A stretch of 64,000 bases of DNA from NCBI RefSeq assembly GCF_016801025.1, contig NZ_CP068983.1, positions 1,364,001 through 1,428,000 of the forward strand, in the 5' to 3' direction. A program made the translations under genes and the position numbers. Origin of the DNA: Paradevosia shaoguanensis. Lineage in GTDB: Bacteria; Pseudomonadota; Alphaproteobacteria; Rhizobiales; Devosiaceae. Positions 2,838 to 17,202 of the stretch are shown one piece after another. The first letter of the stretch is position 1. Every line of letters begins with the position of its first letter. Below the pieces are notes generated by a model. It searched no databases, was not told where the DNA came from, and saw only the letters and a program-made list of their open reading frames with translations.

Positions 2838-4499
2838 CTACCGCAGATCGATATGCGGAATCCCCTTCTTCTCGATCTCGTCAAAACTCTCATCGTACCC
2901 CGCATCCGCATATCGCATGACGCCCAGTGAGGTATCGTTGGTCTGCACATGCCTGAGCCGTTCTGCCCCCTCTGGCGTGCCGTCCGCGATCGTGGTGACG
3001 CCGGCGCTGGTCATGTAGCCGGCATAGCCGCCGCCGCCGGAGTGAATGGCTACGAGGTCGGCCATGGAGGCGGTGAGCAGCATGGCGTCGAGCAGGGGCC
3101 AGTCGGCGATGGCGTCCGAACCATCCTTCATGCGCTCGGTCATGATGTTGGGATGCGCCATGGCGCCGGCATCGAGGTGATCGCGCGAGAAGGCGACCGG
3201 GCCCGAGAGGGTGCCGTTGGCCACCAGCTCATTGACCGCCAGCGCCAGCTGCGTACGCTCGCCATGGCCGAGCCAGGCGATGCGGGCGGGGAGGCCTTCG
3301 AAGGGGACGTATTGGCGGGCGAGGCCGATCCAGTTGGTGACGATGTTGTTGCCTGCGAACATTTTCAGCACCAGCTCGTCGATCTTGCCGATGTCGTCGG
3401 GATCGCCCGAGAGGGCCATCCAGCGGAAGGGGCCGATGGCGCGGGCGAAGAGCGGGCGGAGATAGGCTTCGGTGAAGATTTTTATGTCGAAGGCATTGGC
3501 GACGCCGCCGTCGCGGGCCTGGGTGCGGATGAGGTTGCCGTTGTCGAACACCTCGGCGCCGCGCCGCTGGAATTCGAGCATGGCGTTGACGTGCTCGACG
3601 ATCGAGGCGCGGCTGGCGGCCATGAGCTCGGCGGGGTTGTCCTTGCGCAGGCGCCGGACCTCTTCGAGCGAATAACCTTTTGGCACGTAGCCGTAGACAA
3701 GGTCGTGGGCCGAGGTCTGGTCGGTGACGATGTCGGGCGTGATGCCGCGCCGGGCGATCTCCGGGTAGATTTCGGCGGCGTTGCCGACAAGGCCGATGGA
3801 GGTGGGGCGCTTCGCCTTCACCGCCTCATCGATCATGGCCAGCGCCGTGTCGAGGTCAGGCGCGACATGTTCCAAATAACCGATCTCCTTGCGCTTGCGG
3901 GCGCGTTCGGGATCGACGTCGACCACGAGAATGGCGGCATTGGCCATGCGGCCGGCAAGCGGCTGGGCGCCGCCCATGCCGCCGAGGCCGGCGGTGAGGA
4001 TGAAGCGGCCGCGCAGGTCGCCGTCGAAACGGTTCTCGGCGATGCGCATGAAGATCTCGTAGGTGCCCTGGATGACGCCCTGGCTGCCGATATATTGCCA
4101 GGCGCCCGCCGTCAGCCCACCCCAGGCGATGAGGCCCTTTCTCTCAAGGTCGTAGAAGTTCTCGGCTTTGGCCCACTGCCCGACGATGTTGCAATTGGCC
4201 ATGATGACCAGCGGCGCCTTGGCGTGGGTCTTGAGCAGGCCGATCGGCTTGCCCGACTGGATGATGAGGGTCTGATCCTCGTCCATGGTCTTGAGCGCGG
4301 TGACGATGGCGTCATGCGCGGCCCAGTTGCGGGCGGCCTTGCCGAGGGCGGCGTAGACAACGAGGTTATCGGGGTCTTCACCTACCGAGAGCACGTTTTC
4401 GAGGAGGCGCAGCAGGGCTTCCTGGCGCCAACCCTTGGCGCGCAGCTCCTTGCCGCCGGGAATGGGGAAATTGGGGTGACGGGGATTGGGTGTGGGCAT
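2838..4499 (-). CDS. urocanase homologue, probable thiourocanate hydratase
   Basis: The 553-residue protein has the full urocanase architecture: QSGKPIGLLKTHAKAP (81-96), the NAD-binding GLGGMGGAQP (171-180), VTDQTSAHD (258-266), and MRYADAGYD (528-536). At the family signature around residue 400 it reads FEGLPARIAW, so Ala408 replaces the catalytic Cys. The usual HHGGGVGMG loop is replaced by HSGGGGYAG (486-494). It sits last in a cluster with a MIO-less lyase, a DUF917 desulfurase-like protein, a hydantoinase and a carbamoylase. The best inference is hydration of thiourocanate to the thiohydantoin propionate during ergothioneine breakdown. The ATG at 4499 is chosen because it matches the family N-terminus; an in-frame upstream ATG at 4583 lies inside a repeat. 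Confidence 0.8.
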   Translation of the reverse strand: MPTPNPRHPNFPIPGGKELRAKGWRQEALLRLLENVLSVGEDPDNLVVYAALGKAARNWAAHDAIVTALKTMDEDQTLIIQSGKPIGLLKTHAKAPLVIMANCNIVGQWAKAENFYDLERKGLIAWGGLTAGAWQYIGSQGVIQGTYEIFMRIAENRFDGDLRGRFILTAGLGGMGGAQPLAGRMANAAILVVDVDPERARKRKEIGYLEHVAPDLDTALAMIDEAVKAKRPTSIGLVGNAAEIYPEIARRGITPDIVTDQTSAHDLVYGYVPKGYSLEEVRRLRKDNPAELMAASRASIVEHVNAMLEFQRRGAEVFDNGNLIRTQARDGGVANAFDIKIFTEAYLRPLFARAIGPFRWMALSGDPDDIGKIDELVLKMFAGNNIVTNWIGLARQYVPFEGLPARIAWLGHGERTQLALAVNELVANGTLSGPVAFSRDHLDAGAMAHPNIMTERMKDGSDAIADWPLLDAMLLTASMADLVAIHSGGGGYAGYMTSAGVTTIADGTPEGAERLRHVQTNDTSLGVMRYADAGYDESFDEIEKKGIPHIDLR

Positions 4500-4516
4500 C
4501 TTTTGGTCCTTCAGTG

Positions 4517-4640
4517 CGGGAGGCCCTCCCCCTCCCCGACCCTCCCCGCAAGGGGGAGGGTGTTTCGATCCAGTTTGCGGCAAGCCAATACCCCCACTTG
4601 CACTCCCCTTGCGGGGAGGGTCGGGGAGGGGGGTGAGCCG
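4517..4640. repeat. inverted palindromic repeat inside the operon
   Basis: Two inverted halves rich in CCCTCCCC and GGGGAGGG flank GTGTTTCGATCCAGTT, a block also found at 7077-7092. The repeat fills the gap between the DUF917 and urocanase-like genes. It could form a long stem in the polycistronic mRNA. Confidence 0.7.
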
Positions 4641-5756
4641 TCAGCCCCGGTCTGTCTTCCTGCGCCCCAGGTCGAGCGCGTATTTGGCGATTTCGATACC
4701 CATGGCCTTTTCGACCGACGGATAGACCGTCGGGTCAAGGACGGACGAGGCCAGGGGAATGATGGTTTTGGGGACGTGCAGCACGAAGATGAACATGCCT
4801 TCGCGCACCTGGCCGACGCTGAGCGGAGTGCCGGCGGCGTCGAGGGTGGTGATGACGTCGGGGAAGGTAGCGAGGCGTGTGCCGCCCGCGTCTTCGACAG
4901 CCATGTACTCGTTCATGACGTGGAGTTTTGTCGCCTTGTCGCCGGTTCCCAGCGTGATGGTGCCGATGTCGAAGGCTTCCTTGGTGTAGACCACGTCCTT
5001 GGCCTCGACATTGCCCTGGGCGAGGATGGTGCCGCCCGTGGTCCTGACGATGGCATCGATGATTTTCGAGCCACCGCCGGCTTCGGCGGCGATGATGGCT
5101 TCGCCCAGTTTCAACGCCATCGAGATGCCGCCGAGCGCCGCATTTTTCGCCACATAGGAAGCGCGTAGAGGGTTGCGGCAGGAGGCGATGAAGCCGCCCG
5201 ACTGGTCGGCGGCGGTGCGCAGGACCGGCGAAATCTTGGCGGTGGCGCCGCGCACGACCAGCTCGATGTAGCGGTTCTCGTCGCGGTTGCCGCCCACGGC
5301 GGTCTGGATCATCTGTTCGGGGCTGCCGGCCATGCCGATGGAGCCCATGTCGCCGGTCGGGTGGGCGCGCACGTCGCCGACCGCATCGACCACCTTGGTG
5401 CCGAGCATGGCGGAGGGAAGCCAGGCGTTGAGCGTCGAGGATTTGCCGTTCTGGCCGACCATGAGGCCGGAGAGCTTTTCGCCAAGCGCGTCCTGGAGGA
5501 GCTGGGCGGCCTTGATGTAGTCGACGCCCTGCATTTCCCAGGGCGTGGTCGAGGCCGGGGCGCCGATGGCGGCGGCCGTGGCGACCCAGTCGTTGTCGTC
5601 GAGTTCCTCGATCGAGACCAGTTCGGGCTTGCCGATCGAGACCGCGGCGCGGCCGAGCATGCGGCCATGATCGGCCCAGCCGCCGCCGCCCGCTGCATAG
5701 ACGGAGCCGCCCTTGACCGCCGGTTCGATGTCTTTTTCGGTGAGAATGCGGCCCAT
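4641..5756 (-). CDS. DUF917 / S-methyl thiohydantoin desulfurase-like protein
   Basis: The 371-residue protein belongs to DUF917, a family now linked to S-methyl-thiohydantoin desulfurases. It opens with the glycine-rich SVYAAGGGGWADHGRML and contains TGDMGSIGMAG in the middle. A conserved-looking Cys lies in FIASCRNPL. In the inferred pathway it would remove sulfur from 3-(5-oxo-2-thioxoimidazolidin-4-yl)propionate to give hydantoin-5-propionate. Its ATG overlaps the stop of the upstream M20 gene by one base (TAATG), indicating tight coupling. The family link is strong. The exact substrate is inferred from neighbours. Confidence 0.8.
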   Translation of the reverse strand: MGRILTEKDIEPAVKGGSVYAAGGGGWADHGRMLGRAAVSIGKPELVSIEELDDNDWVATAAAIGAPASTTPWEMQGVDYIKAAQLLQDALGEKLSGLMVGQNGKSSTLNAWLPSAMLGTKVVDAVGDVRAHPTGDMGSIGMAGSPEQMIQTAVGGNRDENRYIELVVRGATAKISPVLRTAADQSGGFIASCRNPLRASYVAKNAALGGISMALKLGEAIIAAEAGGGSKIIDAIVRTTGGTILAQGNVEAKDVVYTKEAFDIGTITLGTGDKATKLHVMNEYMAVEDAGGTRLATFPDVITTLDAAGTPLSVGQVREGMFIFVLHVPKTIIPLASSVLDPTVYPSVEKAMGIEIAKYALDLGRRKTDRG

Positions 5757-7006
5757 TACTTGGCTTCCTGTAGTTGCTTGTCGAGGGTTTTGACCGCTTC
5801 GAGCAGCACGGCGGCGCCCAGGGCGATGTCCTCGGTCTTGGCGGATTCCTCGGGGGCGTGGCTGCGCCCGCCAAGGCAGGGGATGAAGATCATGGCCGCC
5901 TTGGTGGCGCGGGCCATCCAGGCGGTGTCGTGGCCTGCTCCCGAGGCCATGCGGCGATGCCGGGCGCCCGTGGCCTCGCAGGCGGCGTCGAGGACCTTGA
6001 GGAGGTCCGGGTCGCAGGGGGTCGGCTGGTTGTCCGAAATGCGGCGTGGCTTGGCGACCGAGCAATCGGTCTCGTCGGCGACTTCAAGGGCGAGCGCATC
6101 GAGGGCTTCGCAGAAGCGCTCCATGTCGGCGCGGTTCTCGGCGCGGGCGTCGATGAGCATCACCGCGCGGGACGGCACGACATTGGCGGCGTTGGGCTCG
6201 ATGCGGAATTCGCCGACGGTTGCAGCGAAGTGGGCTTCGCTTTGCGCGAACTGATGAGCCAGTTGCTCGATGGCGAGCACGAGGCGCGCGGCAGCGGTCA
6301 AGGCATCGCGGCGCGAACCCATGGGCGTGGTGCCGGCGTGATCGGCCCGGCCATCGACGACGATCTCGATGCGGGTGATCCCGGCGATGGCGGTGACGAC
6401 GCCGATATCGAGTTTTTTGTCTTCGAGGACTGGGCCCTGCTCGATGTGGAGTTCGAGGAAGGCCTTTATGTCGGTGCGCTTTTCGCTGACCTCGGGGTGC
6501 CCGCCAACTTCGGCGATGCCCTGTTCGAGGGTCAGGTCGCCAGAGGTACGAGTGAGCCAATCAGGTGGGACGAGCCCGACCATGCCGCGCGAGCCGATGC
6601 AGGAGACGCCGAAGATCGAGACCTCCTCGGCGAGGAAGTCGACGATTTCGAGGTCGTGGTCGAGCTGAACATCCTGGTCGTGGAGCGCGCGGGCGACTTC
6701 GAGGGCGGCGGAAACGCCTGCTATGCCGTCATAGCGTCCGCCATCGGGCACGGTGTCCGAATGCGAGCCGAGGAGGATGGTGCCGAGGCCGGGCTTCCTG
6801 CCGGGCCGGTGGCCGATGAGATTGCCGGCAGCATCGATGCGGATCTTGAGGCCGGCCTTCTCGAAACGGCGTTCGAGATAGGAGCGGCCGGCCAGGAACA
6901 TCGGGGTGAAGGCCCGGCGGGTATAGGGGTGGTCCAGCTCTGTGATGGCAGCGAGGTCGGAAATATCCTCGGCGATGCGGTCGGGGTTGGTGGGGAGGTT
7001 TCTCAT
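5756..7006 (-). CDS. M20 amidohydrolase, probable N-carbamoyl-L-glutamate amidohydrolase
   Basis: This 416-residue metallohydrolase is of the Zn-dependent hydantoinase/carbamoylase type (AllC/HyuC-like). Metal-site landmarks are GSHSDTVPDGGRYDG (His82, Asp93) and FLAEEVS (Glu127/128). ELHIEQGP holds His187. The dimer-interface HAGTTPMGSRRDA and the late GAGHDTAWM and GRSHAPEE motifs are present. Such enzymes release CO2 and ammonia from N-carbamoyl amino acids. After the hydantoinase it would yield glutamate. The ATG at 7006 fits the family N-terminus. An ATG at 7174 overlapping the hydantoinase stop is also in frame but reads through a repeat. Confidence 0.85.
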   Translation of the reverse strand: MRNLPTNPDRIAEDISDLAAITELDHPYTRRAFTPMFLAGRSYLERRFEKAGLKIRIDAAGNLIGHRPGRKPGLGTILLGSHSDTVPDGGRYDGIAGVSAALEVARALHDQDVQLDHDLEIVDFLAEEVSIFGVSCIGSRGMVGLVPPDWLTRTSGDLTLEQGIAEVGGHPEVSEKRTDIKAFLELHIEQGPVLEDKKLDIGVVTAIAGITRIEIVVDGRADHAGTTPMGSRRDALTAAARLVLAIEQLAHQFAQSEAHFAATVGEFRIEPNAANVVPSRAVMLIDARAENRADMERFCEALDALALEVADETDCSVAKPRRISDNQPTPCDPDLLKVLDAACEATGARHRRMASGAGHDTAWMARATKAAMIFIPCLGGRSHAPEESAKTEDIALGAAVLLEAVKTLDKQLQEAK

Positions 7007-7030
7007 GTGGGGGCTCCCGGGTGAGGGCGG

Positions 7031-7168
7031 TGGGTGTGGCTCACCCCCCTCCCAGCCTCCCCCGCAAGGGGGGAGGTGTTTCGATCCAGTTGCTTGAGCA
7101 TTGAGCGTTCTACACCCACGGTAGGCACCTCCCCCCTTGCGGGGGAGGCTGGGAGGGGTGGGCCGCAT
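7031..7168. repeat. inverted palindromic repeat inside the operon
   Basis: CCTCCC/GGGAGG-rich inverted halves flank a copy of the GTTTCGATCCAGTT block seen also at 4517-4640. The repeat separates the hydantoinase and M20 genes and keeps an open frame into the M20 gene. Confidence 0.7.
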
Positions 7169-7170
7169 GC

Positions 7171-8544
7171 TCATGACGCCACCACGATCTGCTGTGGCGG
7201 GCGCACGAATTTTCCGGTGCCGGGTTCGGAGAGGACCCTGGTGCCGTCGAAGGCCAGCTTGCCGCGCAAGTAGGTGGCGGCCGTGGTCCAGGGGAGCTTG
7301 ATGCCGTTATAGGGGCTCCAGCCGACGACGTTGTTGCCGGAGGCGGCGGCGTCATAGGTCTTTTCGACCGGGACCAGCACCGTGATATCGGCATCGCGGC
7401 CGGGGGTAAGCGCGCCCTTGACGTGGTCGAGGCGGAAGTGGCGGGCCGGGTTTTCGGCCATGAGTTTGGCGGCCCAGGTCAGCGAGATGCCGCGATCCAG
7501 CGCACCCTTGACGAAAAGCGGGACCATGGCTTCGAGGCCCGGAACGCCCGAGGCGTTGGCGAGCATGTCGGGACGGGTCTTGCGGTTTTCCGACCAGCTC
7601 ACGTGGTCGGTCGAGACCAGGGTAACATTGCCGGCGGCAACCTGGCGCCAGAGGGCCTCGACTTCGGTGCGGGGTCGGATCGGCGGGTTGATCTTGGCCT
7701 TTCCGCCGAGGCGCCTGACGTCGTTTTCCTCGTCGAGCGTCAGGTAGTGGATGCAGCACTCGATGGAGGCGGCAAAACCCTGGGCGCGATAGCTGGCGGC
7801 GATGTCGTAGCCGCGCGACAGCGAGCAGTGGACGATGTGAGCGTCGGCGCCGGTGAGGGCGCCGGTTTCGTAGACTTGCAGCGTAGCCAGCAGTTCGGTC
7901 AGCGGCGGGCGCGAGAGGGCGTGGGCGCGGTAATCGGTGATGCCGAGCGCCTTGACCTTTTCCATGGCGGCACGGACGGCTTCGTCGTCCTCGTTATGGA
8001 CGCCGGCGGTGAGGCCGGTTTTGGCGATTGTCGCAAAGCATTCTTCGAGCAGGCCCGGCGGGATGCGGGGGAAGCGCTTGGGGTCGGTGCCGAAGGTCGA
8101 GAACTTGAAGGCGGCGACGCCGGCCTTGACCTGTTCGGGGATGCGTTTGGCGCCTTCGGTCGGATCGACGGTGCCGTAAAGGGCGAAATCGACGCGGGCC
8201 TGCGGGCCGGCATGATCGACCTTCTTGCGGACGGCTTCGGCCGAGCAGACGAGGTTGCCTTCGTCATAGGGCATGTCAACGATGGTGGTGACGCCACCGG
8301 CAGCGGCGGAGCGGGTGGACCAGACGAAATCTTCCTGGTCCTTCTGGGAGAGCGAATGCACCTGGGCGTCGATGGCGCCGGGGAGGATGAGGGCATTGCC
8401 CAGTTCGTGGCGTTCGCGGGCAGCCGGTGCGGGTCCCTGCCCGACCTCGGCGACCTTGCCGTCGCGGACGGCGACGTAGCCGGCTTCGAGGATGCGGCTG
8501 GAAAGCACCACGTTGCCCGAGAGGACGAGATCGAAATCGGACAT
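7171..8544 (-). CDS. hydantoinase/dihydroorotase-type amidohydrolase
   Basis: The 457-residue cyclic-amidohydrolase protein fits the hydantoin-5-propionate hydrolase step. A probable carboxylated Lys147 lies in GVAAFKFST, with His183 in AGVHNEDDE, His239 in HIVHCSLSRG and Asp313 in VSTDHVSWSE. The first metal motif is unusual: IDAQVHS (58-64) has Gln61 where most hydantoinases have His (DxHxH). Similar Gln variants occur in some dihydroorotase-like proteins, so activity is still plausible. It starts 14 bp after the upstream permease gene. A dihydropyrimidinase or allantoinase role is the alternative, but no purine or pyrimidine genes lie nearby. Confidence 0.8.
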   Translation of the reverse strand: MSDFDLVLSGNVVLSSRILEAGYVAVRDGKVAEVGQGPAPAARERHELGNALILPGAIDAQVHSLSQKDQEDFVWSTRSAAAGGVTTIVDMPYDEGNLVCSAEAVRKKVDHAGPQARVDFALYGTVDPTEGAKRIPEQVKAGVAAFKFSTFGTDPKRFPRIPPGLLEECFATIAKTGLTAGVHNEDDEAVRAAMEKVKALGITDYRAHALSRPPLTELLATLQVYETGALTGADAHIVHCSLSRGYDIAASYRAQGFAASIECCIHYLTLDEENDVRRLGGKAKINPPIRPRTEVEALWRQVAAGNVTLVSTDHVSWSENRKTRPDMLANASGVPGLEAMVPLFVKGALDRGISLTWAAKLMAENPARHFRLDHVKGALTPGRDADITVLVPVEKTYDAAASGNNVVGWSPYNGIKLPWTTAATYLRGKLAFDGTRVLSEPGTGKFVRPPQQIVVAS

Positions 8545-8558
8545 GTTCCAAAAGTCTC

Positions 8559-9311
8559 CTATGCGGCTTCCTGCTGGGCGCGGCCGGTGCGCGCCACGAG
8601 GAAGCGTTCGAAGGCCGAAAGGCCGTCGTAGATGAGCACGGCCAGCACGGCGACGATGAGGCCACCCTGCAGGACGAACGCGGTATTGCTGGCCGTAAGG
8701 CCGGCAATGATGACTTCGCCCAGCGTACGCGCCGCCACGGTCGAGCCGATGGTGGCGGTCGCGAGCGAAATAACGGTCGAAAGGCGGACGCCGCCCAGGA
8801 TAACGGGCAGCGCCAAAGGCAGTTCGACGCGGGTCAGGCGCTGCGTGCCGGTCATGCCCATGCCGCGTGCCGCCTCGGTGACGGCGGGCGGCAAGGTGGT
8901 GAGGCCGGTGAGCGAGTTCTCGAAGATGGGCAGGAGGCCGTAGAGGAAGAGCGCGACGAGCGTGGGCGCGGTGCCGAAGCCGAGGATGGGCACGGCAAGC
9001 GCCAGCACGGCGACGGGGGGAAAGGTCTGACCGATATTGGCGAGGCTGCGCGAGAGCGGCAGGAATTCAGCCCCGAACGGGCGCGTGACGAGGATGGCGA
9101 GCCCAACGGCCACGATGGTCGCCGCGACGGTGGCGGCGAAGGTGATGGTCAGGTGGCTGAGCGTCAGGCTCCAGAGGCTCCCGCGATCATAGATGGCGGG
9201 CTGGCCATTCTTGGTGAGCGGCTGCAGCAGGAAGGCAAAGCTTTCCGGCGTCACCAGGAACGCGATGAGCAGCGCCAGCACCACCAGCCTTATGAGCAGG
9301 GGCCATTTCAT
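8559..9311 (-). CDS. OpuC/betaine-type ABC permease (small subunit)
   Basis: A 250-residue membrane protein with about six hydrophobic segments. It carries the permease EAA-like loop EAARGMGMTGTQRLTRVELPLALPVILGG typical of OpuCB/YehW proteins (quoted from 163 on, split: EAARGMGMTGTQ then RLTRVELPLALP). It pairs with the larger permease upstream to form the channel. Its ATG overlaps the ATPase stop by four bases (ATGA). In this cluster the importer would take up ergothioneine, a trimethylammonium betaine, which fits the betaine-transporter family. Substrate is inferred from context. Confidence 0.82.
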   Translation of the reverse strand: MKWPLLIRLVVLALLIAFLVTPESFAFLLQPLTKNGQPAIYDRGSLWSLTLSHLTITFAATVAATIVAVGLAILVTRPFGAEFLPLSRSLANIGQTFPPVAVLALAVPILGFGTAPTLVALFLYGLLPIFENSLTGLTTLPPAVTEAARGMGMTGTQRLTRVELPLALPVILGGVRLSTVISLATATIGSTVAARTLGEVIIAGLTASNTAFVLQGGLIVAVLAVLIYDGLSAFERFLVARTGRAQQEAA

Positions 9312-10243
9312 TGCGGGCGGGCCGCGCGGCGGTTGAGTTCGGTGAGGGTGACGCGCCCGACGAGCTTGCCGCTTTCCTCGACCGGCAGGGCGGCGCGGCC
9401 GGACCACAGGAGTTCGGCAAAGGCATCGCGCAGGGAGGCATCGGCGGAGATGGGAGCGCCGAGGGCTTCGCCGGGCTCGACGGCCTCGCGGATCGAGGCC
9501 AGCGAAAGCAGGCGGAAGGGCCGCTCGCCGGTGCCGATGAGCTCGTTGACGAAGTCGGTAGCCGGGTGCGCGATGATCTCTTCGGGCGTCGCGTATTGGA
9601 GCAGCCGGCCCTTGTCCATGACGGCGATCTTGTCGCCGAGATGGATGGCCTCTTCCATGTCGTGCGTGACGAGCACGACGGTGGTGCCAAAACGTTTCTG
9701 GATATCGAGCAGGTCCTCCTGCGCCTTGGCGCGGATGATGGGATCGAGCGCGCCGAAAGGCTCGTCCATGAGGAGGATATTGGGCTCGGCGGCCAGCGCC
9801 CGGGCGACGCCGACGCGCTGCTGCTGGCCGCCCGAAAGTTCGCTCGGCATGCGGTCGCGATACTGGCCGGGATCGAGCTGGAAGAGGTCGAGCAGTTCAT
9901 CGACGCGCTTGTCGGTGCGCGCCTTGTCCCAGCCGAGCAGTTTCGGGACCGTGCCGATGTTCTGGCCGACGGTGCGATGCGGAAAGAGGCCGTGGCCCTG
10001 GATGGCGTAGCCGATGCGGCGGCGCAGCTCATAGGCGGGGACCGAGCGGGTGTCCTGGCCGTCGATGCGGATGGTACCGGAAGTGGGCTCGACCAGGCGG
10101 TTGATCATACGCAGGAGCGTGGTCTTGCCCGAGCCCGACGTGCCGACGATGACGGTAATGGTATGTGGATCGACCGTCATGGTGACGCGATCGACGACAT
10201 TGGTGTCGCCATAGGTCTTGGTGATCTCTTCGATCTCAATCAT
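9308..10243 (-). CDS. OpuCA-like ABC transporter ATPase with CBS region
   Basis: The 311-residue ATPase has Walker A GTSGSGKTT (about 34-42), signature LSGGQQQRVGVARAL, Walker B ILLMDEPFGALD and the switch His in VLVTHDMEEA. After residue 230 it continues into a CBS-like region that includes AALPVEESGKLVGRVTLTEL. That arrangement is usual for quaternary-amine importers such as OpuCA and ProV. It overlaps the upstream permease gene by eight bases and the downstream permease gene by four. It should power the importer of the ergothioneine cluster. Confidence 0.87.
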   Translation of the reverse strand: MIEIEEITKTYGDTNVVDRVTMTVDPHTITVIVGTSGSGKTTLLRMINRLVEPTSGTIRIDGQDTRSVPAYELRRRIGYAIQGHGLFPHRTVGQNIGTVPKLLGWDKARTDKRVDELLDLFQLDPGQYRDRMPSELSGGQQQRVGVARALAAEPNILLMDEPFGALDPIIRAKAQEDLLDIQKRFGTTVVLVTHDMEEAIHLGDKIAVMDKGRLLQYATPEEIIAHPATDFVNELIGTGERPFRLLSLASIREAVEPGEALGAPISADASLRDAFAELLWSGRAALPVEESGKLVGRVTLTELNRRAARPQ

Positions 10244-11429
10244 TGGCGGGTTCCCGTGGCGAGACCATTTCGACTATGGCATCGAGGATGACGGCGGAGG
10301 CGAAGGCCAGGGCGACGGTCGGGACGGCGCCCAGCAGCACGAGGTCCATCGCAGTCTGGCCGATGCCCTGAAAGACGAAGACGCCGAAGCCGCCGCCGCC
10401 GATCAGCGCGGCGATGGTGGCGAGGCCGATATTCTGCACCAGGACGATGCGGATGCCGGTGAGGATGACCGGAAAGGCCAAGGGCAGCTCGACCGAGAAC
10501 AGGCGCTGGCGATCGGTCATGCCCATGCCGCGCGCCGCGTCGTTGGCGGCCTCGGGCACGCCGACAAGGCCGACCACGGTGTTGGAGACCACCGGCAGGA
10601 GGCTATAGATGAAAAGCGCCACCATGGCGGGCGCGGCGCCAATGCCCGAAACCCCGATGGCTGCGAGCGCGGGTACGGCAGCAGCGAGGGCGCCAAGGGG
10701 GGCGATCAGCAGACCGAACAGTGCGATCGAGGGGATGGTCTGGACGGCGTTGAGGACATTAAGCACGACGGTGCGCAGCCGCCGATTGCGATAGCACGCA
10801 ACGCCCAGCGGAATGCCGACGGCTGTCGCCACGACCAGCGAGCCGAAGGCGAGAAGCACATGCGTCTGGCCTTCACGCCAGAACGCGTCCGCCCGGCTGG
10901 CATATTCCTTGAGGATCGAAAGGTCGCTCCAGGACCCGCTCCAGAGCAGCGCGCCAAGCCCGATCGCAACCACCGCCAGAATGGCGATGCGCGGCCAGGG
11001 CCCGAGGCGCAGGCGCGTCAGCGAATCGGCAGCCAGCAGCGCAAAGGCGCCGGTCAGCACCCAGAAGCCGGCGCCCGGCGCGATGCGCACCAGCTTGTCG
11101 CCTTCCGGAGTGAGAAAATAACCGGCAATGCCGACATAGATCGCAATCGCCGCCAGCGCGACGAAACTCATCGCCAGCCGGAATATCGTCGGCGTGCGCA
11201 GCGCGCTCACCGGAATGGAAACCGCCAGCACCGCTGCGAGAATGGCCGCATGCAGCGGCGGCAGCGCCGCGAAGATCGAGCGTGGTTCGCCCGGCAGGAT
11301 ACGGTTGGGCTTGAAATCGACGAAGGGCAGCGCGAACCAGCCCACCAACACGATCAGCGTAATGACGACGCCGAGCTTGTCGAGGCCGATAACCCGTTTC
11401 GGCAATGCTGTGGCGACGCTTTGAGCCAT
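10236..11429 (-). CDS. OpuC/betaine-type ABC permease (large subunit)
   Basis: This 397-residue membrane protein has extra N-terminal transmembrane segments (about residues 15-200) before the standard permease domain, which contains DAARGMGMTDRQRLF and ELPLAFPVILTG. Homologues with long N-terminal regions occur in YehY-type betaine transporters. ATG 11429 was preferred, although an in-frame GTG at 11435 lies closer to the AAGGGAGG ribosome-binding site, so either may be used. It overlaps the ATPase gene by eight bases. Together with the small permease it forms a heterodimeric channel. Confidence 0.82.
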   Translation of the reverse strand: MAQSVATALPKRVIGLDKLGVVITLIVLVGWFALPFVDFKPNRILPGEPRSIFAALPPLHAAILAAVLAVSIPVSALRTPTIFRLAMSFVALAAIAIYVGIAGYFLTPEGDKLVRIAPGAGFWVLTGAFALLAADSLTRLRLGPWPRIAILAVVAIGLGALLWSGSWSDLSILKEYASRADAFWREGQTHVLLAFGSLVVATAVGIPLGVACYRNRRLRTVVLNVLNAVQTIPSIALFGLLIAPLGALAAAVPALAAIGVSGIGAAPAMVALFIYSLLPVVSNTVVGLVGVPEAANDAARGMGMTDRQRLFSVELPLAFPVILTGIRIVLVQNIGLATIAALIGGGGFGVFVFQGIGQTAMDLVLLGAVPTVALAFASAVILDAIVEMVSPREPAND

Positions 11430-11477
11430 CGTCACCGGGCCTCCCTTGCTCGGATCGATTGGGAAAGTCGACTTCGG

Positions 11478-11504
11478 GGCGGAGAGGGAGGTGCCCTCCC
11501 CGCC
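11478..11504 (-). promoter_or_regulatory. stem-loop between binding-protein and permease genes
   Basis: An 11-bp stem with one mismatch closes a five-base loop just after the binding-protein gene. No T-run follows on the minus strand, so it looks like an mRNA-stabilising or attenuating hairpin that would keep binding-protein levels above those of the membrane subunits. Confidence 0.5.
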
Positions 11505-11519
11505 ACGGGTCGCAAAAGC

Positions 11520-12431
11520 CTACTTGATGAGGCTGTTGGTCTTGAGGAAGTCGAGCGCCACGGCATTGGCCGGTTCGCCCGCCACCTGCACGCGGCCGTT
11601 GAGCTCCTGCAGGGTCTTGAGGTCGAGCTTGGCGAAGACCGGCTTCAGAAGGTCCGCGATCTGCGGATATTGCGTCAGCACGGCTTCGCGGATGATCGGA
11701 GCGGGCTCGTAGACCGGCTGCACGCCCTTGTCGTCATCGAGCACGGTGAGCTTGGAGGGCGCGATGCCGCCGTCGGTGCCATAGACCATGGCCGCATTGG
11801 CGCCCGAGGTCTGCTGCGCCGCCGCCGCGATGGTTGCTGCCGTATCGCCGCCGGAAAGCGTGATGAGCTGCTCGGGCTTCAGGGTGAAGCCATAGGCGGT
11901 CTGGAAGGCGGGGAGCGCTGCCGGCGAGTTCACGAACTCGGAAGAAGCGGCCAGCTTCACTTCGCCGCCGCCGGCAACCCACTTGCCGAAGTCGGAGAGC
12001 GTTTTCAGGTTGTTCGGGCCCGCCACGTCGTCACGCAGCGCGATGGCCCAGGTATTGTTGGCCGGGGCGGGGTCGAGCCAGACGATCTTGTTGGTGTCGT
12101 AGTCGAGCTTCTTGACCTCAGCATAGCCTTCGGCCGCGTTGTTCCAGATGGGCTTGTCGGCTTCGTTGAAGAAGAAGGCGCCGTTGCCGGTATATTCCGG
12201 ATAGATATCGATCTGGCCGGCCGTGATGGCCTCGCGCACGACCGGGGTCGCGCCGAGCTGGATCTTGTCGGTCACCGGAATCTGGTTGGCTTTGAGCACT
12301 TCGAGAATGATGTTGCCCAGCACGCCGCCTTCGGTGTCGATCTTTGAGGAAACCACGACCTGGGCCTGGGCCGCAGTCGCTGTCAGTGCCAGCGCCGCAA
12401 GGGCGCCGAGAATCCTGGTAGTCAGTCGCAT
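11520..12431 (-). CDS. OpuAC/OsmF-type periplasmic substrate-binding protein
   Basis: The 303-residue protein begins with a Sec signal peptide (residues 1-23, cleavage likely after AQA). It contains the quaternary-amine-binding family motif QIDIYPEYTGNG at about 95-106 and many aromatic residues suited to caging a trimethylammonium group. It is the binding component of the four-gene importer. Its place directly after the ergothionase-like gene suggests it captures ergothioneine. A compatible solute such as glycine betaine or choline is the alternative ligand. Confidence 0.85.
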   Translation of the reverse strand: MRLTTRILGALAALALTATAAQAQVVVSSKIDTEGGVLGNIILEVLKANQIPVTDKIQLGATPVVREAITAGQIDIYPEYTGNGAFFFNEADKPIWNNAAEGYAEVKKLDYDTNKIVWLDPAPANNTWAIALRDDVAGPNNLKTLSDFGKWVAGGGEVKLAASSEFVNSPAALPAFQTAYGFTLKPEQLITLSGGDTAATIAAAAQQTSGANAAMVYGTDGGIAPSKLTVLDDDKGVQPVYEPAPIIREAVLTQYPQIADLLKPVFAKLDLKTLQELNGRVQVAGEPANAVALDFLKTNSLIK

Positions 12432-12513
12432 GATGCACTCCCGTGTTGCCTTGGCTCATGCCAAGCTATTGCCTACCCTAACGTTTCAGGCCCGCGCGAC
12501 CAGCCCGCACTTG

Positions 12514-14058
12514 CTAAGCAATGGGGCCCAAAGCGAAAAAGTCGTCCAACTGGGGTAACGGTGCTTGGGAAATAAGTTTCCCCATCGTTTCGTCCGAACC
12601 CAGATCGCTCTCGATCGCTTCCACCTCCGCCGATAGCGGACGGTCGAGCCTGTAGAACTCGGCATGGCCGCGCACGATCTCGTAGATCATGCCGGGCACG
12701 CCGGCCGGCCGGTCACCCAGGATATCCATGGCCTGGGCCGAAAGCAGGGCCTCGAGCGCCGCCATGCGGCGCAGGGCCCGCACCTGCCGTTCGAATCGCT
12801 CGACGACCAACGGCAGGAAAGCCGCCTCGTCCTCGATGCCGGCTGCCACTACCATGGCCTGCGCCGAGATCGGTGTCGACATGGAATGGACACGGGCGAA
12901 CAATTCGCCGGCCAGCTTGATGATCGGCCCGAAACCGGTTGCAATCGCGCCCGGCGCCACGAGATTGATCGGCAGGTCGCGCCGTACGCCGTTCCCCAGC
13001 AACACGCAGCGATTGAAGGAATTTCGCGCTGCGTGCGCCAGCGCGAGCTGCGCGGTCTGGAGGAAAACCGTCACGTCGAGCGGCAGCGAGCCGCCCGAGG
13101 TCAGCACCTCGCCCTCGACCACCACCGGATTGTCGTCCGTTCGCCCGGTCGCTGCCAGAATCGTGCGGCCGGAAACCAGAAGGCTCTCGAACGCGGTGCC
13201 GAAGACCTGGGGAATCATGCGCAGGCTCAGGGGGTCCTGGACATGCGTCGTCACCGGCCATTCCCAGTCGGCAACCGCGTCCATCATCCAGGTGCCGATC
13301 AGCGCCTCGCGCTCGGTGCCGACATGGGCCACCGCCTTCCAGGGGTCGCGCGACGCGCCCAGCCCGCCGCCGGTCATGAGCGCCGTCGCCAGCATGACGC
13401 GCACTGCGCTCGCCGCAGCGCGCATGGCGCCCGCCGCCGCTGCATAGCCAACGGCATTGATCGAAATGGAGGCGAGGCTGTCGCGCGGCGCCAGCTGCAC
13501 CGGCTTGAGGCCCGCCTCGGCAAGCGCGGCTTCCGCCGAAAGCCGCCGGCCATGATAGATGGCCTCGCCGACCCCAGTCAGCACCGCCCCGATCTGGCCC
13601 ATGAGCCCGATATCGGCGCAGCCGATCGAGCCGGTGCGGCGCACCACCGGCACCACATCGGCCGAAAGCAGGCGCAGATAGGTATCGACCAGTTCCGGCG
13701 AGCAGCCGACGCGCCCGGTCAGCGCGGTATTGACGCGGATGGCCATGGCGTTGCGTACGACGGCGCTCGGAAACGGCGCGCCGGTGCCGAAGTGGTGCGC
13801 CCGCACCAGGCCCATATTGTAGGTATCAAGGTCCTCAGGCGACCACTCGATGTCCTTCATCGCCCCCACGCCCGTCGTCGCGCCGTAGACCGGCGCGCCG
13901 TGAGCGATGCGTTCCTCCATCACCGCGCGGCTGGCGCGCACCCGCTCCATCGCCGCCGGGTCGGCGAGGGGTACGGCCAGGCCGGCGCCGATCCGCGCCA
14001 TCGTCGCAAAGCTCAGCGGCTTTCCGTCGAAGGTTACGGGGGTTACGGCAACGGTCAT
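12514..14058 (-). CDS. MIO-less ammonia-lyase homologue, probable ergothionase
   Basis: The 514-residue protein has the histidine/phenylalanine ammonia-lyase fold. Landmarks are VYGATTGVG (58-65, Tyr58), VQDPLSLRMIPQVFG (273-287) and DDNP (308-311). Two catalytic features differ. The cofactor loop reads RTGSIGCADIGLMG (141-154), so the Ala-Ser-Gly that cyclises to MIO is missing. The Tyr of QDPYS is Leu277. Loss of MIO is expected for ergothionase, which eliminates trimethylamine, a good leaving group, to give thiourocanate. It is the first gene of the cluster, divergent from a LysR-type regulator. The function is a strong inference from motif and context. Confidence 0.8.
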   Translation of the reverse strand: MTVAVTPVTFDGKPLSFATMARIGAGLAVPLADPAAMERVRASRAVMEERIAHGAPVYGATTGVGAMKDIEWSPEDLDTYNMGLVRAHHFGTGAPFPSAVVRNAMAIRVNTALTGRVGCSPELVDTYLRLLSADVVPVVRRTGSIGCADIGLMGQIGAVLTGVGEAIYHGRRLSAEAALAEAGLKPVQLAPRDSLASISINAVGYAAAAGAMRAAASAVRVMLATALMTGGGLGASRDPWKAVAHVGTEREALIGTWMMDAVADWEWPVTTHVQDPLSLRMIPQVFGTAFESLLVSGRTILAATGRTDDNPVVVEGEVLTSGGSLPLDVTVFLQTAQLALAHAARNSFNRCVLLGNGVRRDLPINLVAPGAIATGFGPIIKLAGELFARVHSMSTPISAQAMVVAAGIEDEAAFLPLVVERFERQVRALRRMAALEALLSAQAMDILGDRPAGVPGMIYEIVRGHAEFYRLDRPLSAEVEAIESDLGSDETMGKLISQAPLPQLDDFFALGPIA

Positions 14059-14107
14059 GGCAATGGTTCCTCTCTCATGGGGCACGCTATTGGATAAAAT
14101 GCGGAGC

Positions 14108-14119
14108 TGGGATATCCCA
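14108..14119. promoter_or_regulatory. palindrome in the ergothionase/LysR divergent promoter
   Basis: TGGGATATCCCA is a perfect 12-bp inverted repeat midway between the divergent lyase and regulator genes. It is a candidate binding site for the tandem-HTH LysR-type regulator, though it lacks a classic T-N11-A form. Confidence 0.4.
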
Positions 14120-14167
14120 AATCGTGAACACCAGATGCCGTCGGATCGAGCATGAAGGACGCGGGAA

Positions 14168-15316
14168 TTGGATAGCGCTACGCTGGTCATCGCCCATCGG
14201 GTGCTGACGGCGCGCAGCATACGCGCAGTGGCGCGCGACCTCAAACGGGCGCCGGCAAGCGTGGCGGCCGCCATGTCGCGCCTCGAAGCCGAGATTTCAG
14301 TGACCCTGGCCGAGCGCGCCGGCGCCGGCCTCGTGCTCACCCTCGAAGCCGAACGCCTCGGCCCGGAGATTTCCCGCGCCACCGCAATCATTGAAGCCAT
14401 CGTGCCAGATGCCGCCCAACGCGGCATCAATCTCGAAGCCCTCTGGCGCTTCGCGGAAGTCGCAAGCGCCGGCAGCGTTCGGCGCGCCGCGCAACGGCTC
14501 GGCCTCGGCCAGCCCCAGCTCACCCGCCAGATCGCCGCGCTCGAAGCCCTGCTCGGTGCGCCGCTTCTCGAACGCGGCACCGCCGGCTCTCGCCCCACCG
14601 CCAGGGGCGAAGCGATGCTCGACCGCATCCAGGATCTGGCCGGCATCTGGTCCGACCTGGCGCGCACCGCCCCCGATCGCTTCCGCAAGCACGCCGCCAC
14701 GACGCGCCTGGGTTCGGTCATTCCTCTTGGCTACGAAAGCGAGCTGGCCCGCATGCTGGCCGCGCTCACCGCCCGCTGGCTCAAGGCGCGGCCGCGCCAG
14801 CCGCTCTTCATCTCGAGCACCACCGCCGAGGAATTGCTGGCCGGCCTCAAGAGCGGCCGGTTCGACGCCGCCATTCTCGACGTCGAAACACCGCCGCCCG
14901 AATACGAAGCCCACCTGCTCTACCGCTCGCCGCTCGCTCTGGTCGGCACCCGGCAATCTCTGGCGGCGGCCGGCGACGTATCAGCCCTCCTCGCCGGCAT
15001 GCCCATTGCCGTTCCGAGCCTGCGCAGCGGCCTGCGGCAGGCGGCGATGCGCTATCTCGATGCGACGCTCGACGAGCTTCGGCGCGAAAAGCTGACGCTG
15101 ATCGAGATCGACTCGATCCCCGTCATCGTCAACCTCGTGCTCCACCACGGCTTCATCTCGGTGCTCCCCGAAGCCTCAGTCGGCAACATCCGCGGCGACC
15201 TCGCCCGCCTTCCGTTGGGCGAGGAGCATGCGCTTTCCATCCGGTTGGTCTGGCCGAAGGGCAATGGCGGCCGGAACGTCGGAGAAATGGTGCTGGGGTT
15301 GATGGGCAGGGAGTGA
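14168..15316 (+). CDS. LysR-type regulator with two N-terminal HTH units
   Basis: At 382 residues this is about 80 longer than normal LysR proteins. Residues 1-68 resemble one LysR winged helix (AVARDLKRAPASVAAAMSRL, ending LVLTLEAERL). Residues 88-155 are a second, canonical one (SVRRAAQRLGLGQPQLTRQI, ending RPTARGEAML). A substrate-binding domain fills about 180-382. Start is TTG 14168; the upstream ATG at 14152 is out of frame and gives only a seven-codon peptide whose TAG overlaps this start. Divergence from the ergothionase-like gene makes it the likely regulator of the cluster, perhaps sensing ergothioneine or thiourocanate. Confidence 0.82.
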   Translation: MDSATLVIAHRVLTARSIRAVARDLKRAPASVAAAMSRLEAEISVTLAERAGAGLVLTLEAERLGPEISRATAIIEAIVPDAAQRGINLEALWRFAEVASAGSVRRAAQRLGLGQPQLTRQIAALEALLGAPLLERGTAGSRPTARGEAMLDRIQDLAGIWSDLARTAPDRFRKHAATTRLGSVIPLGYESELARMLAALTARWLKARPRQPLFISSTTAEELLAGLKSGRFDAAILDVETPPPEYEAHLLYRSPLALVGTRQSLAAAGDVSALLAGMPIAVPSLRSGLRQAAMRYLDATLDELRREKLTLIEIDSIPVIVNLVLHHGFISVLPEASVGNIRGDLARLPLGEEHALSIRLVWPKGNGGRNVGEMVLGLMGRE

Positions 15317-15430: not shown

Positions 15431-16066
15431 CTACTCCTCCCCCAACCGCGCGCGTCCATCGGCAATATCGCGGGCCGCATCTTCGAGCACGTGCAGGAAC
15501 CGTTCGCCCGCCATCTCGATCGGCCCGGAATTCTCGATCAGCACGGCATCGGAGCGGATGCTTTCCTCGACCTGCATGCGGCTGAGGCGCTTGGCGATCG
15601 CCGCCTCGTCCTCGCGGCCACGGCTGGCGAGGCGCTTGGCGATGATGTCGGGATGGGCTGAGACCGAAACCACGATCAGGTGCTCATAGCGGTCGGCAAT
15701 GGCCGGAACCAGCGCGCGCGAAGTGTTGACGATCACGACGCGCCCGGCATCGATATCCCTGTCGATGCTGTCCGGCAAGCCGTAGCTCAGGCCGTGCGCT
15801 TCCCAGTCGAGGGCAAAGCCGCCTGCGGCCTTGCGGGCCGCGAAGGCTTCTACGCTCAGCGTATCGTGGTCTTCGCTGCGCGCATCGGCGTCGCGGGTGA
15901 TGATGCGGCGCGGGAAGACAAAATTGCTCCGCCCCTCAAGATGGTCGCGGGCGTAGTTGATGATCGAATCCTTGCCCGAGCCGCTGGGACCGACCACCGC
16001 CACGAAAGTGCCCGCCGTGAACGGCACGGGCTTGTGCAGAGCCTCGTCGGAAGCGGTTCTGGTCAT
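15431..16066 (-). CDS. phnN: ribose 1,5-bisphosphate phosphokinase
   Basis: The 211-residue kinase resembles guanylate kinase. Walker A GPSGSGKDS lies at 26-34, followed by the RRIITRDAD nucleobase-loop equivalent and a Lid region with KRLASRGRED. PhnN phosphorylates ribose 1,5-bisphosphate to PRPP, the salvage step after C-P lyase. It overlaps phnM by four bases (ATGA), so the two are co-translated. The core phnGHIJKL genes are not in this window. Confidence 0.9.
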   Translation of the reverse strand: MTRTASDEALHKPVPFTAGTFVAVVGPSGSGKDSIINYARDHLEGRSNFVFPRRIITRDADARSEDHDTLSVEAFAARKAAGGFALDWEAHGLSYGLPDSIDRDIDAGRVVIVNTSRALVPAIADRYEHLIVVSVSAHPDIIAKRLASRGREDEAAIAKRLSRMQVEESIRSDAVLIENSGPIEMAGERFLHVLEDAARDIADGRARLGEE

Positions 16067-17202
16067 ATCACCCGCTGCCCCTGGCGATAGACGGCGCGCA
16101 CGATCGGCACGCCTTCGTGGAGACGCACGCGCACGAGGTCGGCGCGCTTGCCGATGGCAATCTCGCCGCGATCGTCAAAGCCCGCGGCCCGCGCCGGGCG
16201 GCGCGTCACCAGCGAGATGGCCTCGGGCAGCTTGATGGCCTCGACCTTGTCACTGAGCGTAAAGACCGCCTGCATGAGCGAGAACGGCACATAGTCCGAG
16301 GAGAGGATATCGAGCAGGCCGTTCTCGGCCAGCTCGCGCGCCGAGACATTGCCCGAATGCGAACCGCCGCGCACGATATTGGGCGCGCCCATCAGCACGG
16401 CCATGCCGGCGCCGTGCGAGGCGCGGGCAGCTTCGAGCGTGGTGGGGAATTCGGCGACGCTGATGCCCTGCTCCACCGCTTCGGCGACGTGCCCGGTCGT
16501 GGCGTCGTCATGGCTCGCCAGCACGATGCCGCGCTCCTTGGCGACTTCGGCGATGGCGGCGCGGTTGCGCGGCGCATTGGCCTGCGATTCGGCGATGCGA
16601 CGCTCGCAGAAGGCGCGGAACACGTCGTCCGGCATCTTGAGCTTGCCCTGATAATACTTGGCGTATTCCGCCAGGCTGGCGAACTGGCGCTGGCCGGGGG
16701 CGTGGTCCATGAGCGAGGCCAGGCGCACGCGCGGATCGGTCTTGAAGAGCTCGAGGCCTTCGAGGCAATCGGGCGAGGAGACCTCGCAGCGCAGGTGGAT
16801 GTAATGGTCGGCGCGCAGCCGGTCGTCGGCCATGGCCTGCTCGATGGCATCGGCCAGCCGACGCATGTCGGCGTGGTCGACATCGGTCTGTTCGTCCGTG
16901 CCGAGCCGCAGCGCATCGAGCACCGTGGTGATGCCGGACGAGGCGACCTGCGCGTCGTGGGCCTGGACGGCGGCAATGGCGCCCCAGACCACGCCGGGGC
17001 GCGGCGCGTAGTGGTTTTCGAGGTGATCGGTATGGAGCTCGATGAGGCCCGGGATCAGATAATCGCCGCCGAAATCCTCGCCGCGCGCTCCGCCTTCGGA
17101 GATATCGGCGATGACGCCGTCGCGCAGCGCAACGGTGCCTGTTACCTCCTCATCGGCAAGGACGAGGCGGGCATTGGTGAAGACCTGTTCGGAAGCGGAC
17201 AT
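16063..17202 (-). CDS. phnM: alpha-D-ribose 1-methylphosphonate 5-triphosphate diphosphatase
   Basis: The 379-residue amidohydrolase-fold protein shows the PhnM metal motif IELHTDHLENHYAPRPG (His57, His60, His64 region) and the late LASHDDATTGHVAEA segment. PhnM cleaves pyrophosphate from the C-P lyase intermediate. It is the first gene of a phnMN pair, with a Pho box about 50 bp upstream of the ATG at 17202. Separation from the phnG-L core is common in rhizobia. Confidence 0.9.
   Translation of the reverse strand: MSASEQVFTNARLVLADEEVTGTVALRDGVIADISEGGARGEDFGGDYLIPGLIELHTDHLENHYAPRPGVVWGAIAAVQAHDAQVASSGITTVLDALRLGTDEQTDVDHADMRRLADAIEQAMADDRLRADHYIHLRCEVSSPDCLEGLELFKTDPRVRLASLMDHAPGQRQFASLAEYAKYYQGKLKMPDDVFRAFCERRIAESQANAPRNRAAIAEVAKERGIVLASHDDATTGHVAEAVEQGISVAEFPTTLEAARASHGAGMAVLMGAPNIVRGGSHSGNVSARELAENGLLDILSSDYVPFSLMQAVFTLSDKVEAIKLPEAISLVTRRPARAAGFDDRGEIAIGKRADLVRVRLHEGVPIVRAVYRQGQRVI

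What the first reader, a model, noticed from the sequence alone, without database searches (positions are those of the whole stretch)
2838..15316. Complete ergothioneine import and degradation locus
Nine leftward genes and a divergent regulator match each step of the known five-enzyme route: lyase, hydratase, desulfurase, hydantoinase and carbamoylase, plus a betaine-type importer. The enzymes seen directly are a MIO-less ammonia-lyase homologue, a Cys-to-Ala urocanase homologue, a DUF917 protein, a cyclic amidohydrolase and an M20 carbamoylase. From memory, the same activities were characterised in Burkholderia sp. HME13. The link to ergothioneine is inference, but it explains every gene at once, including why HutH- and HutU-like genes occur without hutI, hutF or hutG. 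A dedicated importer and regulator in the same block would be a compact, mobile-ready system for using ergothioneine as C, N and S source.
Basis: partly seen in the sequence, partly recalled or inferred. Interest (0 to 1): 0.9.

Follow-up and report, generated by a model that had tools for sequence, protein, structure and literature searches.

The report
Ergothioneine degradation locus with unusual regulator
These genes very probably let a bacterium of the Devosia family take up the antioxidant ergothioneine and break it down by an already known five-enzyme route; what looks new is a regulator with two DNA-binding domains and a precise DNA switch that ties the importer to the enzymes.

Summary
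Nine leftward genes and a divergent LysR-type regulator lie at 2838-15316. Four enzymes pass NCBI's cut-offs for thiourocanate hydratase, thiohydantoin desulfurase, ErtD and ErtE. The lyase lacks the MIO triad and forms a clade apart from HutH. The genome holds no other gene of the HutH or urocanase families. The five-enzyme ergothioneine pathway is thus present but already known; activities rest on homology.

Two layers were not seen in the literature listings. (1) An OsmF-type importer stands beside the lyase in 12 of 16 lyase genomes of a 297-genome order sample. (2) The regulator has two tandem winged-helix domains and goes with a bipartite site, TGTWC-N9-GATATCCC, found once in this genome, at the lyase promoter. 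In 11 of 11 Rhizobium-type genomes that carry the regulator, the site stands at the lyase promoter and at a distant promoter between regulator and importer. Importer, regulator and enzymes look like one regulon even where apart. More distant relatives have variant sites or none. 'Mobile-ready' is unsupported. Importer specificity, inducer and DNA binding are untested.

The parts
12514..14058 (-). ergothionase-type lyase (ergothioneine -> trimethylamine + thiourocanate, inferred), MIO-less HutH relative, P0001
   Evidence: PF00221; far below HutH cut-off, 211 of 539 bits; best PDB match is the chain named ergothionase, 6s7j/6s7q, 177 bits against 140 for HutH; clade apart from HutH
2838..4499 (-). 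thiourocanate hydratase, P0002
   Evidence: NF058530 1046 bits against cut-off 930; S-methyl model 756 of 880 not reached; hutU 701 of 375 also passed; Cys->Ala at residue 408
4641..5756 (-). thiohydantoin desulfurase (DUF917/S-Me-THD family), P0003
   Evidence: NF058529 596 bits against 440; S-methyl model 291 of 450 not reached
5756..7006 (-). ErtE, N-carbamyl-L-glutamate amidohydrolase (M20), P0004
   Evidence: NF058540 600 bits against 520; a general Zn-hydrolase model, NF009531, scores higher, 671 of 486
7171..8544 (-). ErtD, hydantoin-5-propionate amidohydrolase, P0005
   Evidence: NF058538 782 bits against 600
8559..9311 (-). importer permease 2, P0006
   Evidence: BPD_transp_1; synteny
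9308..10243 (-). importer ATPase (ProV-like), P0007
   Evidence: ABC_tran; best NCBIfam TIGR01186, 285 of 326.6 bits, under cut-off
10236..11429 (-). importer permease 1, P0008
   Evidence: BPD_transp_1
11520..12431 (-). importer substrate-binding protein, OsmF family, P0009
   Evidence: NF049931 502 bits against 400; nearest PDB chains named as glycine-betaine-type binding proteins (474, 469, 464 bits), OsmF 4wep 362, ergothioneine-binding EgtUC about 93
14109..14130 (-). bipartite operator TGTTC-N9-GATATCCC reading towards the lyase; the palindrome TGGGATATCCCA spans 14108-14119
   Evidence: only match in the 4.63-Mb genome; conserved at many lyase promoters
14059..14167 (.). divergent promoter region between lyase and regulator
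14168..15316 (+). LysR-type regulator with two tandem winged-helix domains (my provisional name: ErtR), P0010
   Evidence: two HTH_1 stretches + LysR_substrate; AlphaFold2 model, mean pLDDT 86: two similar units at residues 3-78 and 89-177

Best explanation
This is a locus for using ergothioneine as a nutrient. An OsmF-type ABC importer brings in ergothioneine (inferred from synteny and shared regulation). The MIO-less lyase removes trimethylamine and gives thiourocanate; thiourocanate hydratase makes the thiohydantoin; the DUF917 desulfurase swaps sulfur for oxygen (releasing hydrosulfide); ErtD opens the hydantoin; ErtE removes the carbamoyl group to give glutamate (steps inferred from homology and the known pathway). 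A LysR-type regulator with two winged-helix domains per chain is encoded divergently. It most likely binds the bipartite site TGTWC-N9-GATATCCC in the shared promoter and controls import and breakdown together, presumably in response to ergothioneine or an intermediate. The site's conservation and its companionship with the regulator are shown; binding, inducer and sign of regulation are inferred.
For: Four enzymes over their curated NCBIfam cut-offs. Lyase: MIO triad gone in 102 of 102 rows; Lys381 in 102 of 102, shared with the PDB ergothionase and absent from 22 of 22 HutH-like rows; clade support 98. No second PF00221 or PF01175 gene and no EgtD-family gene in the single-contig genome. Five enzymes in one order in 68 of 80 loci. 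Importer next to the lyase in 12 of 16 lyase genomes, also at 38-49% lyase identity. In Rhizobium-type genomes the importer is elsewhere but lies divergent from the same kind of regulator in 8 of 8 regions read, and the promoter between them carries the site (8 of 8). A search of 40 whole genomes that I chose found the site at both promoters in 11 of 11 Rhizobium-type genomes with the regulator; the importer sites of 3 of them (G308, G686, G690) were not used to derive it. In those 40: site in 24 of 24 with lyase and regulator, 0 of 6 with lyase and no full-length regulator found, 1 of 10 without lyase (an off-motif match); 35 of 40 matches at these promoters; reversed-pattern control 1 match.
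Against: No activity, binding or expression was measured. The solved ergothionase does not group with this clade in the tree (weak, long branch), and on 86 discriminating columns it matches this clade in 22, HutH in 24, neither in 40. No ergothionase model in NCBIfam was hit. The importer's putative pocket is the same in copies with and without the enzymes beside them, and enzyme-linked binding proteins are not one clade, so its sequence does not show specificity. Most lyase-promoter sites come from loci used to define the pattern, and I chose the 40 genomes knowing many of their promoters. Not among the 40: G239 and G309, which have regulator homologues (39-40%) but only one-base variants of the core, and G315 and G152, whose more distant regulators (26%) go with no site. 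14 standalone importer regions in lyase-less genomes show no such regulator.
Confidence: 0.9

Rival explanations
1. The locus degrades S-methyl-ergothioneine rather than ergothioneine: same logic, with S-methyl-specific hydratase and desulfurase.
For: Both proteins also match the S-methyl models.
Against: Both stay below the S-methyl cut-offs (756 of 880; 291 of 450) and pass the non-methyl ones (1046 of 930; 596 of 440).
Confidence: 0.03
2. The true substrate is ergothioneine sulfonate or another oxidised ergothioneine, with a lyase that accepts it.
For: A separate sulfonate pathway is cited in PMC13405746 (Yan 2022; seen only as a citation; not held). From recall, the solved ergothionase accepts the sulfonic acid.
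Against: The downstream genes are those of the thiohydantoin/hydantoin route; desulfurase and hydantoinase would have no obvious use after loss of sulfite (inference).
Confidence: 0.04
3. It is a diverged histidine-utilisation (hut) operon.
For: Lyase and hydratase are HutH and HutU relatives; hydratase also passes the hutU cut-off (701 of 375).
Against: Lyase at 211 of 539 bits for hutH, MIO triad lost, hydratase Cys lost; hydantoinase and carbamoylase instead of hutI/hutG in the cluster.
Confidence: 0.01
4. The importer is a general glycine-betaine-type transporter that happens to be co-transcribed; ergothioneine enters mainly another way.
For: OsmF equivalog; same pocket residues in linked and standalone copies; binding protein in 66 of 297 genomes against 16 with the lyase; linked copies scattered on the tree.
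Against: Adjacency in 12 of 16 lyase genomes; shared regulator and operator even where unlinked.
Confidence: 0.2
5. The site belongs to another regulator, or the tandem LysR protein uses only one of its two DNA-binding domains.
For: No binding data; two lyase-only Rhizobium loci (L059, L079) hold the palindrome, though not the full pattern, in genomes without a detected full-length regulator; G239 and G309 have regulator homologues but only one-base variants of the core.
Against: Regulator and full site go together in 24 of 24 and are jointly absent in 6 of 6 lyase genomes of the 40 chosen; both domains visible in 11 of 13 aligned homologues, more weakly in two.
Confidence: 0.2

Closest known systems
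Bacterial five-step ergothioneine catabolic pathway (ergothionase, thiourocanate hydratase, thiohydantoin desulfurase, ErtD, ErtE)
   Same: All five enzyme types, four at NCBIfam equivalog level.
   Different: Here with a linked OsmF-type importer and a tandem-domain LysR regulator. The main paper (Beliaeva 2021, recalled) is not held, so its own gene maps were not compared.
EgtU ergothioneine importer of Firmicutes (PMC9732360, passages read)
   Same: Quaternary-amine binding-protein family; related by sequence (about 93 bits).
   Different: There the binding domain is part of the permease chain; here it is a separate protein, nearer to glycine-betaine/OsmF-type chains (474 to 362 bits).
OsmF (YehZ-type, name recalled) betaine ABC importer family
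   Same: NF049931 502 of 400 bits; SBP-permease-ATPase-permease order as in standalone copies.
   Different: Coupled to ergothioneine genes by position or by regulator and site.
LysR-type transcriptional regulators
   Same: HTH plus effector domain; Foldseek matches to solved LTTRs over about 300 columns.
   Different: A second winged-helix-plus-linker unit at the N-terminus; the 50 best structure matches are all 279-326 residues long.

Membership tests
Ergothioneine catabolic (ert) locus | MIO-less ergothionase-type lyase | tested here: met
   Triad lost 102 of 102 rows; best PDB match named ergothionase. The tree cannot join it to that enzyme.
Ergothioneine catabolic (ert) locus | Thiourocanate hydratase, thiohydantoin desulfurase, ErtD, ErtE at curated cut-off | tested here: met
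   All four over cut-off.
Ergothioneine catabolic (ert) locus | Activity on ergothioneine | not testable with these tools
   Needs enzymes or cultures.
Histidine utilisation (HutH) | MIO triad and HutH cut-off | tested here: not met
Histidine utilisation (HutU) | Conserved Cys; hutU cut-off | tested here: inconclusive
   Score passes hutU (701 of 375), but the thiourocanate model fits far better (1046) and the Cys is Ala.
S-methyl-ergothioneine catabolism | S-methyl hydratase and desulfurase cut-offs | tested here: not met
   756 of 880; 291 of 450.
EgtU-type ergothioneine importer | Binding domain fused to permease | tested here: not met
   Separate genes 11520-12431 and 10236-11429.
OsmF importer family | OsmF equivalog score | tested here: met
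   502 of 400 bits.
LysR-type regulator | HTH_1 plus LysR_substrate domains | tested here: met
   (13 of 13).
LysR-type regulator | A single N-terminal winged-helix domain | tested here: not met
   Two HTH_1 stretches; two units in the model.

The most novel reading that the evidence does not exclude
The regulator is a LysR-type protein that reads a two-part operator with four winged-helix domains per dimer (one pair on TGTWC and its upstream dyad, one pair on TGGGATATCCCA, centres about two helical turns apart), senses ergothioneine or thiourocanate, and commands an ergothioneine regulon in Devosia- and Rhizobium-type bacteria; the OsmF-type importers in this regulon, annotated for glycine betaine, are ergothioneine importers.
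Probability: 0.4. Interest if true: 0.65.

Novelty: new variant of a known kind. Interest (0 to 1): 0.5.

Why it matters
How bacteria that eat ergothioneine take it up and sense it did not appear in the search listings seen (several listings were capped, and most subscription papers are not held). A defined regulator and a site that is unique in this genome make the question testable in a few experiments and could give an ergothioneine biosensor. It would also correct the annotation of a set of 'glycine betaine' importers. It suggests that ergothioneine breakdown (and trimethylamine release) is frequent in Rhizobium and Devosia: one scan found 192 stretches that encode a relative of the lyase, of which the best 80 were kept and looked at. 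A LysR protein with duplicated DNA-binding units would interest those who study how such regulators evolve.

Tried and rejected
S-methyl-ergothioneine and hut readings: rejected on scores and residues. Joining the lyase to the solved ergothionase by tree: not achieved; long branch, support 63, and a symmetric column count was neutral (22/24/40), so only shared residues and the PDB ranking are used. AlphaFold model of the lyase from seven sequences was poor (pLDDT 45) and was not searched. Pocket comparison of the binding protein: positions were carried over from EgtU (PMC9732360 passages) by motif and by eye, not by structure, and three of the thirteen positions were out of register; nine of the other ten are identical in 59 of 59 linked and standalone rows and one differs in a single row, so specificity is undecided. 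Binding-protein tree: linked copies need 12 label changes, at least 5 forced; nine Rhizobium-type rows were wrongly labelled standalone, corrected. Ergothioneine synthesis in the same genome: no EgtD-family gene. Trimethylamine use: only a 34.6-bit FMO-like fragment, not followed. Promoter and repeat scans of the divergent region gave nothing.

Rows dropped or limited: the lyase row L010 was left out of the HutH-like set. In one search, 10 of the 104 'upstream' stretches come from loci centred on the binding protein and may not reach the promoter; the count of 57 exact palindromes is given of all 104, and some genomes occur more than once. Thirty-three of the 47 stretches without an exact palindrome (L170-L173 read in place of their shorter twins) were re-read with one mismatch allowed over 700 bp: 11 Rhizobium regions hold a one-base variant, and so do L087, L149 and L173. 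The regulator alignment leaves out L149 (its start was not picked well), L173 (match begins at residue 101) and L075/L143 (match begins at residue 30). The regulator search covered 18 chosen genomes; L073 and L103 were not among them.

Literature: search listings only, except passages of PMC13405746, PMC9732360, PMC10903977, PMC5882156 and PMC6018408; PMC9516567 was searched and held none of the terms. LysR proteins with two HTH domains were sought; four papers were listed each time, the passages with those terms read in two of them speak of AraC- and MarR-type regulators, and the others were not opened.
Full report
What is there. Ten genes fill 2838-15316: nine leftward, one divergent. From the promoter outwards: lyase, substrate-binding protein, permease, ATPase, permease, hydantoinase ErtD, carbamoylase ErtE, DUF917 desulfurase, thiourocanate hydratase. 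Gaps run from -8 to 164 bp. The window is part of a single-contig genome of 4.63 Mb.

Enzymes. NCBIfam scores against curated cut-offs: thiourocanate hydratase 1046 of 930, thiohydantoin desulfurase 596 of 440, ErtD 782 of 600, ErtE 600 of 520. The S-methyl variants stay below their cut-offs; the hydratase also passes hutU, 701 of 375. The lyase passes no equivalog. Its nearest solved structure is the chain named ergothionase (6s7j/6s7q; from Treponema denticola by recall and by a title cited), 177 bits against 140 for HutH. In 60 related genomes plus its own, lyase matches fall into two bands, 69-100% and 26-30% identity, with nothing between. A wider order sample and a phylum sample fill in 38-67% members that, where aligned, keep the clade's residues. 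In 102 of 102 distinct clade rows the MIO triad is gone. Lys381 is present in 102 of 102, Asp69 in 101 (one gap); the solved ergothionase shares both, while 22 of 22 HutH-like rows lack Lys381 and 2 of 22 have the Asp. The row L010 was left out of the HutH set; it is also MIO-less and has the Lys. The clade is one side of a branch with support 98 on a 63-row tree, but the solved ergothionase's place is unresolved, and a symmetric column count is neutral. The hydratase has Ala where HutU has Cys: 76 of 76 against 4 of 4 rows that cover the column. The genome has one PF00221 gene, one urocanase gene and no EgtD-family gene, so it has no other gene of the HutH or HutU families.

Neighbourhoods. 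One scan of a collection of 84,980 species found 192 stretches that encode a relative of the lyase; the best 80 were kept, mostly Rhizobium and Devosia, with some Salinarimonas and Pelagibacterium. Of these 80, 68 have the five enzymes in the order seen here (51 without the importer between, 17 with it), 8 are partial and 4 have the lyase alone within the fetched DNA. The 4 lyase-only genomes each carry a hydratase of 81-82% identity outside the fetched DNA. In an order sample of 297 genomes, 66 have the OsmF-type binding protein and 16 the lyase (both at E <= 1e-60); in 12 of the 16 the two genes are neighbours, in 3 they are on different contigs, in 1 there is no such binding protein. Fourteen lyase-less regions read around the binding protein hold the four transporter genes or most of them (L168 lacks an ATPase hit) and show no such regulator. 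In a 398-genome phylum sample 5 have the lyase at E <= 1e-55.

Regulator. P0010 has two HTH_1 stretches and a LysR effector domain. In an alignment of 13 homologues both HTH regions are kept in 11, more weakly in the two most distant; three loci with unclear or truncated N-termini were left out. The AlphaFold2 model (mean pLDDT 86, pTM 0.53) shows the same run of three helices, two strands and a long linker helix twice, residues 3-78 and 89-177. The 50 best Foldseek matches are ordinary LysR regulators of 279-326 residues. Nine of the 80 loci have it (40% identity or more) beside the lyase.

Operator. The 109-bp region between lyase and regulator holds the palindrome TGGGATATCCCA (14108-14119). 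Exact GGGATATCCC occurs in 57 of 104 lyase-upstream stretches (10 of the 104 may not reach the promoter); 61 distinct lyase-promoter sites fit TGTWC-N9-GATATCCC. The Rhizobium clusters have no such regulator beside the enzymes. Yet 8 of 8 Rhizobium genomes searched that have the full cluster carry one elsewhere (36-38% identity over nearly the whole length), while 8 of 8 genomes without the site (7 Devosia, 1 Salinarimonas) and 2 lyase-only Rhizobium have none of that kind (in two of the Devosia genomes there are only partial 31% matches without the first domain). That distant regulator lies divergent from the importer operon in 8 of 8 regions read (six of the genomes plus G058 and G217), and the promoter between them carries TGTTC-N9-GATATCCC in 8 of 8.

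Genome-wide test. The pattern was searched in 40 whole genomes of my choice, giving 40 matches against 1 for the reversed pattern. By position and neighbours (27 matches checked by alignment, the others by coordinates), 24 are at lyase promoters, one in each of the 24 genomes with lyase and regulator; 11 are at the importer/regulator promoter, in 11 of 11 Rhizobium-type genomes that carry the regulator (8 from the Rhizobium loci; G058, G217 and G308 are unnamed, share one genus code, and the lyases of G058 and G217 group with Rhizobium); 5 are elsewhere and lack the letters shared before GATATCCC. None of 6 lyase genomes without a detected full-length regulator has the site (two of these are lyase-only Rhizobium); 1 of 10 lyase-less genomes has one (off-motif). 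The window's genome has exactly one. Lyase-promoter matches are partly by construction, since the pattern came from such loci; the importer sites of G308, G686 and G690 were not used to derive it. Against a universal rule: G239 and G309, not among the 40, have regulator homologues (39-40%) but only one-base variants of the core, and G315 and G152, with regulators of 26% identity, have none. The shorter palindrome GGGATATCCC occurs five times in the own genome; the four other sites lie inside frames of the mechanical reading-frame list, one of them close to a tRNA-like end (by eye), and none has the full pattern.

Reading. The catabolic pathway is already known (gene names exist in NCBIfam; the five-step reconstitution is recalled, paper not held). 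What adds to it is the control layer and the importer link. The importer is coupled to breakdown either by position or, where it has moved, by the same kind of regulator and the same site. I take this as good evidence that it belongs to the ergothioneine regulon. It does not prove that ergothioneine is its ligand: sequence does not separate linked from standalone copies, and a general betaine importer under this control remains possible.

Mechanism proposed (inference). In several Devosia-type promoters (L005, L006, L044, L075) the TGTTC half is part of a dyad GAACA-N5-TGTTC, about 20 bp centre to centre from the TGGGATATCCCA palindrome (read from the sites printed). A dimer with four winged-helix domains could hold both. 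An activator of the usual LysR type, with the operator about 50 bp upstream of the lyase start codon, fits; a repressor is not excluded.

Noticed in passing
L010 (G053:C82), match 1482-2951: A second kind of MIO-less ammonia-lyase relative (motif ASIGA-GDL, Lys at the column of Lys381, 27-29% identical to the window lyase); possibly a lyase for another betaine.
   Followed up: no
L059, L073, L079, L103 (Rhizobium and Rhizobiales): Lyase alone within the fetched DNA; in L059 and L103 it sits near the same kind of neighbours as the whole cluster has in L051 (by eye). All four genomes have a thiourocanate hydratase elsewhere.
   Followed up: partly
L033, L035, L036, L038, L039, L043, L049 (Devosia), L086 (Salinarimonas): Clusters without the tandem-domain regulator and without the site, so some other control may act. 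L036 has a reading frame with a DeoR-like start upstream (by eye).
   Followed up: partly
window 15431-17202: Reading frames that look like phosphonate-use genes (phnN- and phnM-like by eye) next to the locus.
   Followed up: no
e.g. L155-L168: Standalone OsmF-type importers with binding proteins up to 78% identical to the window's in genomes without the lyase; their substrate is open.
   Followed up: partly
G239 (L173) and G309 (L149): Regulator homologues of 39-40% identity whose lyase promoters hold one-base variants of the palindrome core; the site may drift with the regulator.
   Followed up: no
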